In this document: one piece after another, positions 1-16,162 of the stretch
How the letters are laid out: each line of letters starts with the position of its first letter
How positions within the stretch are numbered: position 1 is the stretch's first letter
IMG/VR virus record: IMGVR_UViG_3300032018_000022
Span: 1 to 24,981 of that record
Origin: a virus
Reading direction: 5' to 3' (one strand)
Length of the DNA stretch: 24,981 nt
Notes under the pieces: model-generated
The model's input: the letters and a program-made list of their open reading frames with translations, nothing else
What the model was told of the DNA's origin: nothing
Databases searched by the model: none
Program-made: the position numbers and the translations under genes

Positions 1-55
1 GGTTAAGCGACCTAGAGCAATTTCCCCCATTTCGTTTTTTTCACGATCTTGACGC

Positions 56-670
56 ATGAACATCCAAACCATTCCCCTCTCCGACCTCTCGCTCGACCCA
101 AGCAACGTCCGCAAACACTCGCGCCGAAACCTCGACGCGATTAAAGCGAGCCTCCGCAAATTCGGTCAGCAAAAACCCATCGTCGTGGACGCGAAGGGAA
201 TCGTCTTGGCCGGCAACGGAACGCTCACCGCCGCGCAGGAACTCGGCTGGACCGAAATCCAGATCGTGCGAACCGAACTGGCTGGCGTCGAGGCCACGGC
301 GTTTGCAATCGCGGACAATCGGACGGCGGAGCTTGCGGAGTGGGAAGACTCATTGCCCGACGTAATCAAATCACTCATTGCTGCTGGCGTCGCGTCGGAC
401 GACATCGGATTCAGCCAGATGGAAATCGACGACATGATGGAAGCCGACGCGATCATGGACGAGGTGGACGAGGTGGTGCACGAGCAGAGCATCCAAGTGG
501 CACCAGACAAAGAATATGTGCTCATCATCGCGGAGAATGAAAGCGAGTGGGACGAGATGGTCGCATACTTCGATCTCAAAAAAGTGCGAAGAGGCGGCTA
601 CAAGGAAGGGTCGGCGTTCGATGCTGTCGGAACCGAGCGCGTGCTGCCGTTCAAGCGCGTAAAAAAATGA
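56..670 (+). CDS. ParB-fold protein (ParB/Srx-like nuclease domain)
   Basis: 204 aa. Residues 1-100 read as a ParB/Srx N-terminal domain: an opening strand (IPLSDLSLDPSNVRKHS), a helix followed by FGQQKPIVV, the loop GNGTLTAAQELG at 53-64, and AIADNRTAELAEW. In ParB proteins the loop usually carries an Arg (G-x-x-R); here that position is Thr57, so CTPase or nuclease chemistry may be changed. Residues 115-148 are acidic. Residues 150-204 form a second small alpha/beta segment (EYVLIIAENESEWDEM) where related phage proteins often carry a methyltransferase. The stop overlaps the next gene by ATGA, so it is probably translationally coupled to the glycosyltransferase. Phage ParB domains of this kind are known beside DNA-modifying enzymes and terminases. 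A role in guiding modification or packaging is inferred. The start has no Shine-Dalgarno sequence; only 55 bases precede it. Confidence 0.8.
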   Translation: MNIQTIPLSDLSLDPSNVRKHSRRNLDAIKASLRKFGQQKPIVVDAKGIVLAGNGTLTAAQELGWTEIQIVRTELAGVEATAFAIADNRTAELAEWEDSLPDVIKSLIAAGVASDDIGFSQMEIDDMMEADAIMDEVDEVVHEQSIQVAPDKEYVLIIAENESEWDEMVAYFDLKKVRRGGYKEGSAFDAVGTERVLPFKRVKK

Positions 671-1380
671 TCATTGCAATACCGAGCAAAGGAAGGGCGG
701 GACAGACAAAGTCAGATAAGGTGCTTCCGTCTGCCGTAATTTTCGTGCCGGAATCGGAGATGGGACAATACAAGAGGACAAATCAAAACGTGGTGGGCGT
801 GCCTGATAACGTGAAGGGGATAACAAAAACAAGAAATTGGATTCTGCAAAACTGCGGATCGCCTCGCGTGGTATTTATCGACGACGACGTAAAAATGCAG
901 GGATGGGTGAAGCTATACAGCGACAAGGCTAGGCATAAAAAACTGGATGAAAAAACATGGCTTAAAACATTCGAGCGAATGTTTGATTCAGCGGAGCAAA
1001 TGGATTACAAAATATGGGGCGTCGCAACGCAAAGCGCGACTCGATCGGTTTATCCATACAAGCCATTCCTGTTCAGAAGCTATGTGACAGCTTCGTGTAT
1101 GGGAATTATTAACGACGGAACGTATTATTTCGACGAGGAGTTTCAAGTAAAGGAGGATTACGAGATTTGCCTTCGACACGTAAAAGAGCGGGGTGGAATT
1201 TTGTGCGCAAGGTTCGCGTATTGGGAAAACTCGCATTGGGCGGACGAGGGCGGATGCAAATCATACCGAACGCAAAAGATGGAAGCTGAGTGCATCAGGA
1301 AGCTCGTCGAAAAATACCCGAGTTACATTCGGGAAATAATCCGAGGCGGATCGGAGTATTCGATCTCGCTCAACTTCTGA
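667..1380 (+). CDS. TET-associated-type glycosyltransferase (TAGT-like)
   Basis: 237 aa. The frame is open further upstream, but the ATG at 667 overlaps the preceding stop (ATGA) and begins exactly at the conserved family start MIIAIPSKGRAGQTKS. Visible landmarks are PSKGR at 6-10, LPSAVIFVPESE near 20-31, VPDNVKGITKTRNWIL at 45-60, the metal/nucleotide-sugar motif IDDDV at 71-75, and KEDYEICLR at 162-170. These match my memory of the TET-associated glycosyltransferase family, a GT-A fold found in phages that oxidise and glycosylate bases in DNA. Substrate and sugar donor are not visible. Its neighbours, a ParB-fold protein and terminase genes, are the usual context. GC is about 43% in a sampled 60 bases (781-840), much lower than flanking genes, which suggests recent acquisition. 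No TET/JBP dioxygenase is in this window. Confidence 0.72.
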   Translation: MIIAIPSKGRAGQTKSDKVLPSAVIFVPESEMGQYKRTNQNVVGVPDNVKGITKTRNWILQNCGSPRVVFIDDDVKMQGWVKLYSDKARHKKLDEKTWLKTFERMFDSAEQMDYKIWGVATQSATRSVYPYKPFLFRSYVTASCMGIINDGTYYFDEEFQVKEDYEICLRHVKERGGILCARFAYWENSHWADEGGCKSYRTQKMEAECIRKLVEKYPSYIREIIRGGSEYSISLNF

Positions 1381-1381
1381 C

Positions 1382-2020
1382 ATGACCGACCCCGAGCAAT
1401 CACCGTCCGAAATCCTCGCGCGCCGCAACGTCCAAAACATCGCGGTCAAACTCAAGGCCGGCAAGACGCTGACGACCTCGGAGCGGAAGGCCCTCAACGA
1501 TTTCCAGACCGGCCAGCTCGACGGCTGGGTGAAAGACCTGAGCACGCTCGCGAAAGAACTCGGCCTCTCCCGCCAAGCCATCTACGACGCGCGCAACCGA
1601 TTCCCTGACGCACCGAAAAAGCACGAGGATGGACGCCGCGAGAACCTCGCAGCGTGGCAGCAGTTTTGCGCCGAGAACGTGATCGGCAAGGACGTGGCGA
1701 CGAAGAACCTCGCCGAACTCAAAGCCGAACTCATGCGCGAGCAAATCCGCCTCGCCCGCTCCAAGAACGAACGCGAAGCCGGTGACGTCATCGACCGCGA
1801 AGTAGTCGAGGCCATGCTGGTCACTCTGGGCCAGAAGCTCAACCTGCTCCTTCGCCTCAAGCTGGAAGTGGAGCTGGGGCCGCGCGGAGTCGGGATGAAC
1901 GCGGCGGAGCTGAACGTGGAAGGCGGCGTTATCCTTGGCGAGATTCGCGAAGTCATCAACGCGAACATCGCGACGTTTGAGGGCGAGGCGCTGGACAGGT
2001 CGAGGGAGGGAATCGCATGA
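1382..2020 (+). CDS. Putative terminase small subunit (HTH, coiled coil)
   Basis: 212 aa. A helix-turn-helix is readable at about 53-74 (LSTLAKELGLSRQAIYDARN), after a basic N-terminal stretch. A charged helix at 108-135 resembles a coiled coil (LAELKAELMREQIRLARSKN), and a C-terminal helical part may serve oligomerisation. This architecture and position, just ahead of the large subunit, fit a DNA-recognising small terminase subunit similar in role to lambda Nu1. It would bind the packaging site and recruit the ATPase. Family assignment rests on architecture and context, so another phage HTH protein is possible. It begins one base after the previous stop without an obvious Shine-Dalgarno and ends in an ATGA overlap with the next gene. 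Confidence 0.6.
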   Translation: MTDPEQSPSEILARRNVQNIAVKLKAGKTLTTSERKALNDFQTGQLDGWVKDLSTLAKELGLSRQAIYDARNRFPDAPKKHEDGRRENLAAWQQFCAENVIGKDVATKNLAELKAELMREQIRLARSKNEREAGDVIDREVVEAMLVTLGQKLNLLLRLKLEVELGPRGVGMNAAELNVEGGVILGEIREVINANIATFEGEALDRSREGIA

Positions 2021-2523
2021 ATCAGCCGGCCTTGATCCACTTAACGCCGGAAGAAATCACTCACGCTATCGCTAAGGGGACAGAGCGGCAGCGTAGCGCG
2101 GAGCGAAAAAAAAGTGTGTCCGCTTTTCCCGAGCAATACCCGAACCAGCTACTACTCAACCATCAGCACGCAGCTTGCGCCGAACTGGCCGTGGCAAAGT
2201 TCCTTCGAGTCAAAACAGAGCTTGGCGTTGACGTCTACTCGGTGCCGGACATTGACGGGACGAGGATTGAAGTGCGGTGGAGCCGGAGCCGTAACCATTG
2301 CAAGGTGAAGCAGCGTGATATCGAAAACGAACGAGTGATCGTTGGGACTGTGGGGCCGATGCATTGCATCGAGATTCTCGGATGGATTCTCGCCAGCGAC
2401 GCGCCGTCACGGTGCAGGCGGAGTGACCCGAACGACGGAAGGCCAGACTGTTTTTTTGTCGAGGAGTTAGCGTGGGAGAATCCACATGATTTGCACGACT
2501 GGATTTACTCTCTGAGCTCATGA
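2017..2523 (+). CDS. Putative PD-(D/E)XK nuclease-like phage protein
   Basis: 168 aa, unknown function. The core HAACAELAVAKFL (51-63), then PDIDG (77-81) followed by IEVRWSRSR (84-92), then RVIVGTV (106-112) and EILGWILASDA (119-129), resembles a recurring small phage protein. That protein has a conserved Glu, a PDVG-type Asp and an EVR strand, reminiscent of the E...D...ExK site of PD-(D/E)XK nucleases with Arg in place of Lys. Catalysis is inferred only. It sits between the putative small and large terminase genes with ATGA overlaps on both sides (2017-2020 and 2520-2523), so it may act with packaging or with the modification genes upstream. It is AT-richer than the terminase and uses A/T-ending codons, a sign of separate origin. 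Residues 1-45 show no recognisable domain. Confidence 0.5.
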   Translation: MNQPALIHLTPEEITHAIAKGTERQRSAERKKSVSAFPEQYPNQLLLNHQHAACAELAVAKFLRVKTELGVDVYSVPDIDGTRIEVRWSRSRNHCKVKQRDIENERVIVGTVGPMHCIEILGWILASDAPSRCRRSDPNDGRPDCFFVEELAWENPHDLHDWIYSLSS

Positions 2524-4310
2524 CCGCCTCCAACCTCCTCTGCGCCACGCTGCGCCTCCCGCAGCCCGACCTCTCGCCGATCTACGAGTGGGCCCGCAAG
2601 CACATCATCCTGCCCGAGTCCTACGCGACGAGCGGCCCGTTCAACGTGAAGATTTCGCCGTGGCTGATTCCGATCTTCGACGCGCTCCAAAACCCGCTGG
2701 TGCGCCGCGTGCATTTCCGCAAGGCCGTGCAAATCGGCGGCACGCTCGTGGCTGACATCTGGGTGCCGTGGCTCATCTGCAACGACGCAGGGCCAATCTC
2801 GTGGACGATGCAGACCGACGAGATGATCGACCGGCACGCCAAGTCGCGGCTGAACCCGATCTTCGAGAGCTGCAAGCCCGTGGCCGCGATGCTCCCGCGA
2901 GTCGGGCCGAACCGGACGACGACCGAGATTTATTTCGGCGGATTCTTTTTTCTGCTTAATCCTGCGAACATTTCAAGCCAGCAAAGCCAGTCGATTCGTT
3001 ACAAAATAAATGACGAGATATGGCTCCCAAAGTGGCAGGAACCCTATGGCCACGCCGTCGCCCGCGTCTCGCGCTTCGAGGAAGTCGGGCGCTCGAAGAT
3101 TTACAACACGAGCCAAGCGCCGATCATGGACCTTGAAACCGGCAACGTGGAGGACACCTCGTTTCGACAAGGCAACCAACAGGAGTGGAGCACGGAATGT
3201 CCGTCGTGCCACAAGGTGCATCCGCTCGCGTTCGCGTTGGACAAAAACGAGGAGACCGGTCTGCGCGGCGGCGTGGTCTGGGACGCCGCAGCGAAGCGGG
3301 ATGACGAGACGTGGGACGTGCCGCGGGCGGTCGCCTCGTGTCGCTTCCGGTGCCCTCACTGCGGGCACGAGTCGCCCGACACCGACACGACGCGCAACGG
3401 GTGGAAGCGCGCCGGTCGCTTCGTGCCGATGAACCCAACCGCTCCGTCGGAGATTCAAAGCTTTCGCGTGGAGGCCGTCGTCAGCCGCCCGATGCGGCTA
3501 CTCGTCGAGGAGTTTTGCGAGGCCGACAATCACCACGTTCGGCAAGGCGATGATAAGATGAAGATTGAGTTTAGGACCAAGCGCGAGGCGAGGCCGTGGA
3601 TTGTCGAGAAGAAGGTGGTGAACCTCTTCGTTCAGAAATCCGACTACACCGTCGCGCAGTTCTCGAACGGCGAGGGCATCGACGGCGAGCTCATCCGCTT
3701 TATGTCGATCGACCGGCAGCAAGACCACTGGTGGGTTGAAATCGGCGCGTTCAGCTCTGCGACCGGTCCGACCTACCGGCAACTTTATTTCGGACGCATC
3801 GAGACACGGGACCAGCTTCGCCAGATGCAATTCCGTTACAAAGTTCAAGACGCGTGCGTAGCTCAAGATCGTGGCTACCGACCCGCCGACGTGGACCGAG
3901 ACTGCGCGGACTTTGGATGGCGGGGGATGCGCGGGCACGCGCGGAAGACTTGGACGATGAAGGACGACGCGAGCGACAAGCTCATCAACTTTCCGTTCTC
4001 CGAGCCGCGCACGAGCGACTACCGAGGCGGGGATGTCTATTATTACGATTGGTCGGGTGACTATTTCAAAGACCTGCTCGCGAACGCGCTGGAGGCCAAG
4101 GGCGACCTCAAGTGGCTCCTACCGGCAGACGTCAATCCGCTCTATCTCGAACACCTGCGGGGCGAGTCAAAGGTGGAGATTCGCACCGGCGTCTGGGAGT
4201 GGCGCGAGGTCAAAAGCAACGCTCCGAATCACGGGCTCGACACCTCGGCGATGATGCTCTGCATGGCGACGATCGCCAACGTCGTGCGCTACACGCCTAC
4301 GAAAGACTGA
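2520..4310 (+). CDS. Terminase large subunit, GpA family
   Basis: 596 aa, near the usual size for lambda gpA-type terminases. It is the ATP-driven DNA translocase and nuclease that cuts concatemers and fills the prohead. The N-terminal ATPase carries a deviant Walker A at 68-75 (KAVQIGGT), with Lys at the start rather than before Thr/Ser, as in lambda gpA (KSARVGYS), and a Walker B-like KINDEIW at 162-168. Residues 227-281 hold a zinc-ribbon-like insert, CPSC and CPHC, typical of this family. The C-terminal RNase H-like nuclease shows MSIDRQQDHWW with Asp398 and a late acidic site, HGLDTSAMM with Asp574. The start ATG overlaps the previous stop. A patch around 2940-3035 covering Walker B is only about 42% GC with AT-rich codons, unlike its surroundings. 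Confidence 0.93.
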   Translation: MTASNLLCATLRLPQPDLSPIYEWARKHIILPESYATSGPFNVKISPWLIPIFDALQNPLVRRVHFRKAVQIGGTLVADIWVPWLICNDAGPISWTMQTDEMIDRHAKSRLNPIFESCKPVAAMLPRVGPNRTTTEIYFGGFFFLLNPANISSQQSQSIRYKINDEIWLPKWQEPYGHAVARVSRFEEVGRSKIYNTSQAPIMDLETGNVEDTSFRQGNQQEWSTECPSCHKVHPLAFALDKNEETGLRGGVVWDAAAKRDDETWDVPRAVASCRFRCPHCGHESPDTDTTRNGWKRAGRFVPMNPTAPSEIQSFRVEAVVSRPMRLLVEEFCEADNHHVRQGDDKMKIEFRTKREARPWIVEKKVVNLFVQKSDYTVAQFSNGEGIDGELIRFMSIDRQQDHWWVEIGAFSSATGPTYRQLYFGRIETRDQLRQMQFRYKVQDACVAQDRGYRPADVDRDCADFGWRGMRGHARKTWTMKDDASDKLINFPFSEPRTSDYRGGDVYYYDWSGDYFKDLLANALEAKGDLKWLLPADVNPLYLEHLRGESKVEIRTGVWEWREVKSNAPNHGLDTSAMMLCMATIANVVRYTPTKD

Positions 4311-14138: not shown

Positions 14139-15524
14139 ATGACAATTTCCCTCTGTGTCATTGCCGGCAACGAAACCGCGCATATCCGAACCATGCTCGA
14201 TTCGTTCGTCGGCATCATCGACGAACTTTCCCTCGTGCGCGCCATCGGCTCGCAGGAACCCGACGACACCGAACAGCTCGCGCGCGACTGGTGCGAGCGC
14301 AACGCGGTCCCGATCGTGTTCTCGGACTACCGAAACGGCGTCACTGCGCAGGCGTGGCGGCACGTTGATTCGTTTGCGAGGGCTCGCAACCAAGCGTTCG
14401 CCCAAGGCACCGGCGATTGGCTCCTATGGGCGGACTGCGACGACGTGCTGACCGATGCGGCGGACCTCCGCGAAAGGCTCAAGGAACTCACGGAGGACGT
14501 GCTTATGCTCCGATGCCCCTACGACGTGCGCGGCACCGGCAAGAAGCTGCAACGCGAGCGTATCATTCGACGCACGGCGTTTGCATCGGGGCGCGTCTGG
14601 CATCACGACGTCCACGAAAACCTGCTCCTCTTGCCGAACGATCTCCACAACGAATGGTCGGTGCCGGTCTGGCGTCACCAGCCGGTCGCGATCAAGCAGG
14701 GCAACCGCAAGCGCAACCTAGCAATCCTCGGGCGCAGCGTGGCCGAGTCGGCGACCCAATACTTCTACATCCACCAAGAGCACTACTGCGCGGGAAACAA
14801 GACCGCCGCCGAGCAGTTCGGGCGCATCGCGCTTTCGTTCCCGAACCTCGACGACTCGTTTCGCTACGAGGTGCAGCTCAACCTTGCGCGGCTCGTCGCG
14901 TCACGGCGCGAGGCTTTGCAGTTCGCTATGGGAGCCCACGGCGTTTTCCCTTGGTGCCGCGAGGCCATCGCCTCCATCATTATGCTCGCCTTCGAGCGCA
15001 ACGACGGCAGGCGCGCGAGCTTCTGGGCGGAACGGATGATGTCGCTACCGGAGCCGAAGGAGAAGGACCGGCCGTGGACGCACGAAGTGAAGTGGTATGG
15101 CTGGGCCGGTCTTGATCTCGCCGCGCGGTCTTACCGGCTCGCGGACAATCCGAGAAAGGCTGACGGCTTACAGTGGGCGTTCCACAAGCACGAAAAGCCC
15201 GCGATTCGGCTCACGCAGAAAACCCTCGGCGACTCCACGCGCTCAGTCTCCTTCCGTGAAGCGTGGCTCGGGACGGCAGCGCAACCGGAAATCGTCGAGC
15301 ACGTTTTCCTTGTGCGACCCGACGACAAGGAGACGATGGCAATGTCGAAGCAGTTCATCCACGACGTAGGGCAACCGCGGGCGCCAGAGCGCGCGATGAT
15401 CTCGGTGCACATCGAGGACGGAATGGTGCCGCCGCACGACTGGGACAAGCTCGTCATTGCGAGCGGCGTGACGCTCATCGACGCGGAGAACATCAAAGAA
15501 ATCCTCGCGGCGAAGAAGCCGTGA
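14139..15524 (+). CDS. GT-A family glycosyltransferase with C-terminal helical region
   Basis: 461 aa. The opening MTISLCVIAGNETAHIRTML is a family-2 glycosyltransferase start (strand, then NE, then helix). ARNQAFAQGTGDWLLWADCDDVL at 82-104 is the classic segment leading to the DxDD metal/nucleotide-sugar site (Asp99, Asp101, Asp102). Residues 125-165 (RGTGKKLQRERIIRR ... RVWHHDVHENL) fit the acceptor side. Residues 215-340 are helical and TPR-like (SATQYFYIHQEHYCAGNKTAAEQFGR). The last 100 residues are unassigned. It probably transfers a sugar to a virion protein, surface glycan or modified base; the acceptor is not shown. It starts after a terminator, with a GGAGG 12 bases upstream in an A/C-rich leader, and overlaps the next glycosyltransferase by GTGA. 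Confidence 0.78.
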   Translation: MTISLCVIAGNETAHIRTMLDSFVGIIDELSLVRAIGSQEPDDTEQLARDWCERNAVPIVFSDYRNGVTAQAWRHVDSFARARNQAFAQGTGDWLLWADCDDVLTDAADLRERLKELTEDVLMLRCPYDVRGTGKKLQRERIIRRTAFASGRVWHHDVHENLLLLPNDLHNEWSVPVWRHQPVAIKQGNRKRNLAILGRSVAESATQYFYIHQEHYCAGNKTAAEQFGRIALSFPNLDDSFRYEVQLNLARLVASRREALQFAMGAHGVFPWCREAIASIIMLAFERNDGRRASFWAERMMSLPEPKEKDRPWTHEVKWYGWAGLDLAARSYRLADNPRKADGLQWAFHKHEKPAIRLTQKTLGDSTRSVSFREAWLGTAAQPEIVEHVFLVRPDDKETMAMSKQFIHDVGQPRAPERAMISVHIEDGMVPPHDWDKLVIASGVTLIDAENIKEILAAKKP

Positions 15525-16162
15525 GCACGCCGGCGATCATCGTTTGCACGGTCAACGGCGCGTGCCTCAACGTCATGACCGCATCGCTGAACGCCTACGT
15601 TCCGCGCGACGTCGAGCGGTATGTGCATCACAAGGTCGGTGCGAACTTCGGTGACGCCTACAACTTTGCCGCGCGCGAAGCGTTCAAGCGGCACGACGAG
15701 ATTCTGATTTGCAACGATGACATTGTCTTCACGCCGACAACGTGGGCCGTGCTTCTCGCGGATGTCTCGCATCTCCGCAAGGTCGTGCCCGATCTCGGCT
15801 ACGTCGCAACGCGCTCGGACTACGCGCGCGGCGAGCAGAACGTGCGCAGCGGGCGCGGGAAAATCGACTTCCTGCGCTACCAGTCGGAACGGCACATCGT
15901 CGAGACGCCGGTGATCGCGCCGATCTGCGCATGGATTCATCGCGATTCGTGGGTCGATTTCCCGCCGATAAATTGGTTCTCGGACGACGTGCAATGCGCA
16001 GACATGAAGCGGCGGCATTTCATCTCGCGGGCCTACGTTCACCACGTCGGCTCGCAGACCTGCGGGCAAGACGCACAGCGGTGCTACGAGGACGCCGAGC
16101 CGTGGCTACTCGCGAACCGGCCGGAGCTGCACGCGCGGTTTTATTTTACAGGCGCGACATAG
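15521..16162 (+). CDS. Second GT-A-type glycosyltransferase-like protein
   Basis: 213 aa from a GTG start overlapping the previous stop (GTGA). The frame is open far upstream, but that part shadows the previous gene. The sequence begins with a strand (PAIIVCTVNG), has a helix FGDAYNFAAREAF, then the acidic site EILICNDDIVF at about 64-74 as in GT-A enzymes, followed by LGYVATRSDYARG, an acceptor-like APICAWIHRDSWVDFP and WFSDDVQCADMKRRH, the usual acidic base region. A His-rich motif AYVHHVGSQT follows. It is shorter than typical family-2 enzymes but complete in outline. Coupled expression suggests the two enzymes act on the same glycan or in consecutive steps. Both lie inside the head gene cluster. 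Confidence 0.65.
   Translation: MSTPAIIVCTVNGACLNVMTASLNAYVPRDVERYVHHKVGANFGDAYNFAAREAFKRHDEILICNDDIVFTPTTWAVLLADVSHLRKVVPDLGYVATRSDYARGEQNVRSGRGKIDFLRYQSERHIVETPVIAPICAWIHRDSWVDFPPINWFSDDVQCADMKRRHFISRAYVHHVGSQTCGQDAQRCYEDAEPWLLANRPELHARFYFTGAT

What the first reader, a model, noticed from the sequence alone, without database searches (positions are those of the whole stretch)
56..1380. ParB plus TAGT-like glycosyltransferase pair points to DNA base hypermodification
Seen: a ParB-fold gene overlapping (ATGA) a gene with the TAGT landmarks PSKGR, TRNWIL and IDDDV, followed by terminase genes. Known: TET-associated glycosyltransferases occur in phages where TET/JBP enzymes make 5-hydroxymethylpyrimidines that are then glycosylated, with ParB and terminase genes often nearby. 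Inference: this phage probably carries sugar-modified DNA, and its TET/JBP and possibly a DNA methyltransferase gene lie outside the window.
Basis: partly seen in the sequence, partly recalled or inferred. Interest (0 to 1): 0.75.

Follow-up and report, generated by a model that had tools for sequence, protein, structure and literature searches.

The report
Swappable DNA-modification cassette with ParB adaptor

Summary
In detail: ParB-like gene 56-670 overlaps (ATGA) gene 667-1380, which passes the Pfam TAGT cut-off (60 bits against 27.5); terminase genes follow. The window's first 13 bases are very probably the physical left (cos) end: 57 distinct contigs start there. Phages with 92-98% identical large terminase carry different genes between cos and small terminase. 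ParB residues 11-98 are about 90% identical across 77 loci; identity then collapses, and DNA matching stops at nt ~348 and resumes at ~1376-1381. Every one of these 77 ParB domains leads into a DNA-modification gene or candidate: N4/N6 methyltransferase (25), Mom (17), TAGT (16), C5 methyltransferase (12), ABC-ATPase/GNAT (5), TET/JBP (1), methyltransferase-like plus DUF5131 (1). So sugar modification of DNA is well supported, by context. The window lacks roughly the right third of its genome, so absence here is inferred. Best reading: one occupant of an exchangeable modification locus; which base the lone TAGT glycosylates is open.

The parts
1..13 (.). left genome end: cos-like motif GGTTAAGCGACCT
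   Evidence: 57 contigs with distinct first 600 nt start at GGTTNNNNGACCT; contigs with the motif inside show a conserved G-rich stretch with AGACTTCTAGG upstream
56..348 (+). constant part of the ParB-like gene (codons 1-98)
   Evidence: residues 11-98 about 86-96% identical in 77 loci; DNA match to siblings ends at nt 343-351 whatever effector follows
349..670 (+). variable C-terminal tail of the ParB-like protein, specific to the effector class
   Evidence: identity falls below 45% after residue 99; some Mom and C5-methyltransferase cassettes carry CPxC-type tails, TAGT cassettes another
667..1380 (+). TAGT glycosyltransferase (GT-A fold), effector of the cassette
   Evidence: PF20691 60 bits; DDD and KEDYE invariant; AlphaFold pLDDT 82, pTM 0.83, Foldseek matches GT-A enzymes
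1376..1381 (.). right joint of the exchangeable cassette
   Evidence: DNA match to siblings resumes at 1376-1381 in most pairs, at the small-terminase start
1382..2020 (+). terminase small subunit
   Evidence: PHROG 57 E 3.9e-7; 80-100% identical in most siblings with a ParB cassette
2012..2520 (+). second variable site between small and large terminase; here an ORF of unknown function (2017-2523)
   Evidence: DNA match breaks at about 2000-2015 and resumes at about 2512-2521 in nearly all pairs; PHROG 18407, unknown function
2520..4310 (+). terminase large subunit (GpA type)
   Evidence: GpA_ATPase E 1.8e-24

Best explanation
The two genes are one occupant of an exchangeable DNA-modification locus at the cos end of a lambda-like phage lineage. 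A constant ParB-like N-domain, with an effector-specific tail, works with whichever modifying enzyme is fused to it or encoded next; here that enzyme is the TAGT, which most likely transfers a sugar onto phage DNA and so protects it from host restriction. The cassette is swapped as a block by recombination in its conserved flanks (ParB codons 1-98 on the left, small terminase on the right). Shown: gene identity, conserved catalytic motifs, swapping, sharp joints, association with DNA-modifying enzymes. Inferred: DNA as acceptor, a targeting or adaptor role for ParB, recombination through the flanks, anti-restriction benefit, and that no TET/JBP is needed.
For: TAGT profile and T6 alignment; invariant GT-A motifs; GT-A model; ParB adjacent to TAGT in 90 of 94 loci; same pair in cultured phages: Lactobacillus c5 and JNU_P11, Streptococcus Javan291, Microbacterium Quhwahvirus; 77 of 77 ParB loci lead into a modification gene or candidate; constant ParB 11-98 then collapse; joints at about 348 and 1376-1381; effector type does not follow terminase relatedness: a Mom phage has TerL 98.0% identical to the window's, TAGT phages 95.5-96.5%.
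Against: No biochemical evidence that a lone TAGT acts on DNA; the characterised T6 enzyme adds glucose to an already glucosylated base (PMC13216743), and this lineage shows no enzyme supplying such a base. ParB lacks the Arg-rich CTP-binding box of partition ParBs (GNGTL), so its role is unclear. The TAGT fold is also close to teichoic-acid and polysaccharide transferases. Roughly the right third of this genome is missing.
Confidence: 0.75

Rival explanations
1. One reading: a TET/JBP oxygenase (with or without a methyltransferase) elsewhere in the genome makes 5-hydroxymethylpyrimidine, which the TAGT glycosylates.
For: ParB-TET-TAGT cassettes exist in the same slot (L156, L280, L269); roughly the right third of this genome is missing.
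Against: Wherever found here, TET sits in the ParB-terminase slot itself, mostly between ParB and its partner; absent from 57 records holding ParB-TAGT relatives, from complete cultured ParB-TAGT phages and from 34-36 kb siblings.
Confidence: 0.12
2. The TAGT extends sugars placed on DNA by another transferase, like the T6 enzyme, with the other glycosyltransferases of the window (14139-15524, 15521-16162) as first-step enzymes.
For: T6 TAGT does this (PMC13216743); two more GT2-like genes lie in the window.
Against: The 14139 gene is a core gene in 22 of 25 lineage records, including phages with Mom, methyltransferase or no cassette; no source of a hydroxylated base was found.
Confidence: 0.08
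3. The TAGT glycosylates a protein (for example ParB or terminase) or the cell surface.
For: Fold resembles teichoic-acid and polysaccharide transferases.
Against: The other effectors next to the same ParB domain are DNA-modifying families.
Confidence: 0.1

Closest known systems
T6 beta-glucosyl-HMC-alpha-glucosyltransferase (TAGT, PF20691)
   Same: Same family; hhalign probability 95%, E 2.5e-8 over 192 columns, shared GI-TR, DDD and GGC motifs
   Different: T6 encodes a dCMP hydroxymethylase and its TAGT acts on glucosylated hmC (PMC13216743); no such source was found in lone ParB-TAGT phages
ParB-methyltransferase fusions of phages (for example Verrucomicrobia phage P8625)
   Same: Same position near the genome's left end before terminase; homologous ParB domain (35% over 129 aa)
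   Different: Effector is an N4/N6 methyltransferase fused to ParB; here a glycosyltransferase in a second gene
ParB-TET/JBP-TAGT cassettes (L156, L280, L269)
   Same: Same slot, ParB upstream, terminase downstream
   Different: Carry TET/JBP; their TAGTs fall outside the window's TAGT clade
ParB-TAGT of Lactobacillus phages c5 and JNU_P11, Streptococcus Javan291, Microbacterium Quhwahvirus
   Same: ParB gene directly before a glycosyltransferase (one intervening ORF in KaiHaiDragon); terminase follows in the Lactobacillus and Streptococcus phages
   Different: TAGT distant in sequence; Quhwahvirus adds a UDP-glucose-dehydrogenase-like gene and no terminase follows

Membership tests
TAGT (Pfam PF20691) | Profile score above curated cut-off | tested here: met
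   60.4 bits against 27.5
TAGT (Pfam PF20691) | GT-A fold with DXD motif and conserved acidic catalytic block | tested here: met
   DDD and VKEDYE invariant in 18 relatives; model matches GT-A structures
TAGT (Pfam PF20691) | Homology to the characterised T6 enzyme | tested here: met
   hhalign probability 95%, E 2.5e-8
TAGT (Pfam PF20691) | Genomic association with TET/JBP (origin of the name, not a defining feature of the profile; T6 does not meet it either) | tested here: inconclusive
   Not found in the window or in lone ParB-TAGT records, but part of this genome is missing; T6 has no PF12851 match
TAGT (Pfam PF20691) | Sugar transfer to DNA | not testable with these tools
   Needs enzymology or LC-MS
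ParB N-terminal domain | Pfam ParB_N score above cut-off | tested here: not met
   24.6 bits against 26.3; but PHROG 620 ParB-like E 2.5e-37
ParB N-terminal domain | Arg-containing CTP-binding box (GERRxR) of partition ParBs | tested here: not met
   GNGTL in the window; G, N, G and T each in 76 of 77 loci
cos-type phage genome end | Fixed contig end next to terminase genes | tested here: met
   57 distinct contigs start there; terminase genes follow
cos-type phage genome end | Single-stranded cohesive overhang | not testable with these tools
   Needs end sequencing

The most novel reading that the evidence does not exclude
The lone ParB-TAGT pair is a self-sufficient DNA glycosylation system that attaches sugar directly to an unmodified base in DNA, with the ParB domain as an interchangeable targeting subunit shared with Mom, methyltransferase and TET effectors.
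Probability: 0.3. Interest if true: 0.85.

Novelty: new variant of a known kind. Interest (0 to 1): 0.62.

Why it matters
It turns a guess from one gene pair into a natural experiment: near-identical phages that differ in the DNA modification gene they carry, with sharp joints. It suggests that phages change their DNA chemistry by swapping a cassette while keeping a common ParB module, and it predicts that solitary TAGTs (288 of 753 GT-bearing phage genomes in PMC13216743 have a TAGT without alpha-GT or beta-GT, function open) modify DNA without TET. Cultured examples (Lactobacillus phage c5, Microbacterium Quhwahvirus) make this directly testable.

Tried and rejected
TET/JBP outside the slot: searched in relatives and in complete phages, not found. 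Dioxygenase family PF13640 as another hydroxylation route: no matches, but it also missed the known TET records at that threshold, so the result is weak. Second glycosyltransferase (14139) as partner: rejected, core gene independent of cassette. Solved-structure sequence search: no match. Genome-contig scan: one locus only, in a Planctomycetota MAG, so the pair is nearly confined to viral contigs in these collections. Tree of TAGTs: branches of T6 and TET-linked rows too long to place them firmly. The founding TAGT paper and the phage-TET paper are not in the library, so they are not used as evidence.

Full report
OBSERVATION. The ParB-like ORF 56-670 and the glycosyltransferase ORF 667-1380 overlap by ATGA. 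The second passes the TAGT profile cut-off more than twofold (60.4 bits against 27.5) and hits PHROG 842. Its motifs are conserved in 18 relatives. The ParB domain is real but divergent: below the Pfam cut-off, strong in PHROG 620. Terminase small and large subunits follow.

GENOME END. The window's first 13 bases, GGTTAAGCGACCT, are where 57 contigs with distinct first 600 nt begin (GGTTNNNNGACCT). Contigs that run through the motif show a conserved G-rich stretch with AGACTTCTAGG upstream in most. This is very probably the physical left end (cos). Several sibling contigs are 34-36 kb long, and one of them has the motif in its interior (L111, 34,356 bp), so the 25 kb window is taken to be roughly 70% of the genome, with the right arm missing. 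The overhang itself was not shown.

THE PAIR IS CONSERVED. A profile-guided scan found 337 relatives in viral contigs and one in genome contigs. Among 94 loci studied, 90 have a ParB-family gene, typically directly upstream, and two unrelated large-terminase types occur downstream. L012/L013 share 73% TAGT identity but only 27% TerL identity with the window, so the cassette moves between unrelated phages. Cultured phages carry the pair too: Lactobacillus c5 and JNU_P11, Streptococcus Javan291, Microbacterium Quhwahvirus.

THE SLOT IS EXCHANGEABLE. Phages with TerL 92-98% identical to the window's differ in what lies between cos and the small terminase. DNA identity to the window runs from nt 1 to about 348, stops, and resumes at about 1376-1381, for Mom, methyltransferase and the second TAGT type alike; a few pairs (L112, L164, L125, L119) resume later, at about 1433-1457. 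ParB residues 11-98 are about 86-96% identical across 77 loci and drop below 45% after residue 99. What follows or is fused to ParB was classified by blastp against Pfam-checked representatives: 25 N4/N6 methyltransferase fusions, 16 Mom, 16 TAGT (11 window type, 5 of a second type), 12 C5 methyltransferases, 5 ABC-ATPase/GNAT proteins, 1 TET/JBP, 1 methyltransferase-like gene followed by DUF5131. The one locus left over (L259) reads as Mom type on inspection, so all 77 are modification genes or candidates; the ABC-ATPase/GNAT and DUF5131 ones are candidates only. Two of these 77 are in one contig, L069, which has ParB-TAGT and a ParB-methyltransferase fusion in tandem. Other siblings have a gene without ParB that looks HNH-like by eye (no Pfam match), or nothing, in the slot. 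Effector type does not follow terminase relatedness: Mom phages reach 98.0% TerL identity to the window, TAGT phages 95.5-96.5%.

TET/JBP. The search for TET/JBP works in this material: all four TET records given to it were found, and so were two further TET-TAGT records. Relatives of that TET in viral contigs mostly sit in ParB-TET-partner-terminase arrays whose partner is a GT1-like ORF, an FkbM methyltransferase, a TAGT or something else. By contrast, TET/JBP is absent from 57 records holding ParB-TAGT relatives (56 viral and one Planctomycetota MAG), from complete Phorgeous, KaiHaiDragon, Javan291, c5 and JNU_P11 genomes, and from L111, whose 33 called proteins match only ParB, TAGT, terminase, portal, tail, RusA, RecT, DUF3799, an Fn3-like domain and the core GT2. 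Thymidylate-synthase-type hydroxymethylase was absent from 41 records and from 14 more lone ParB-TAGT records, with T6 positive as control. A C5 methylase occurred in 4 of 41 and 0 of 14. TET-linked TAGTs lie outside the window's TAGT clade, though deep branches are unsure. So the name TAGT does not imply TET here; T6 has none either.

HOW IT PROBABLY WORKS. The model has a GT-A fold (pLDDT 82, pTM 0.83) nearest to AvpGT, TarS/TarP, RmlT and WrtF, in line with the placement of T6 TAGT beside GT2 enzymes in PMC13216743. The nearby GT2-like gene 14139 is a core gene independent of the cassette and is not taken as a partner. Context therefore argues that the TAGT modifies DNA, with ParB as a shared adaptor or targeting domain. 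Which base it uses is unknown: canonical DNA (novel), or a hydroxylated or otherwise altered base from an unrecognised source. ParB's lack of the Arg-rich CTP-binding box (the box itself from general knowledge of partition ParBs) argues against a canonical partition role.

LIMITS. Context is not activity. Many contigs are fragments. Pfam searches can miss divergent enzymes; PF13640 missed known TET records at the threshold used. Hydroxylation routes other than those searched were not tested. Chance was not modelled numerically for the 77 of 77 association, and the 77 were gathered by similarity to this window's ParB and TerL, so the class counts are a sample, not frequencies.

Noticed in passing
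window 2012-2520; L003 3831-4523; L004 2026-2778; L007 4231-5064: A second variable site between small and large terminase, and one after the large terminase, with a methyltransferase (L003, PF01555 E 9e-12), a glycosyltransferase-like ORF (L004, by sequence only) and an unidentified ORF (L007).
   Followed up: partly
window 14139-15524 and 15521-16162: GT2-like genes among the structural genes; the first is a core gene in 22 of 25 lineage records whatever the cassette.
   Followed up: partly
L095 4561-5343: Microbacterium Quhwahvirus has a UDP-glucose/GDP-mannose dehydrogenase-like gene (260 aa, central domain E 3.4e-15) right after ParB-TAGT, hinting at a uronic-acid sugar donor.
   Followed up: partly
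L069 415-1050 and 2076-3644: One contig carries two ParB domains in tandem, one before a TAGT (59% to the window's) and one fused to an N4/N6 methyltransferase.
   Followed up: no
L098 3399-3986; L101 140-745: Stand-alone ParB-domain proteins annotated as 'DNA modification methylase' in public records although Pfam finds only ParB_N: probable annotation carry-over from ParB-methyltransferase fusions.
   Followed up: no
L027: Only relative of the window-type TAGT in the genome-contig scan: a Planctomycetota MAG contig (53% identity), not examined for prophage or contamination.
   Followed up: no
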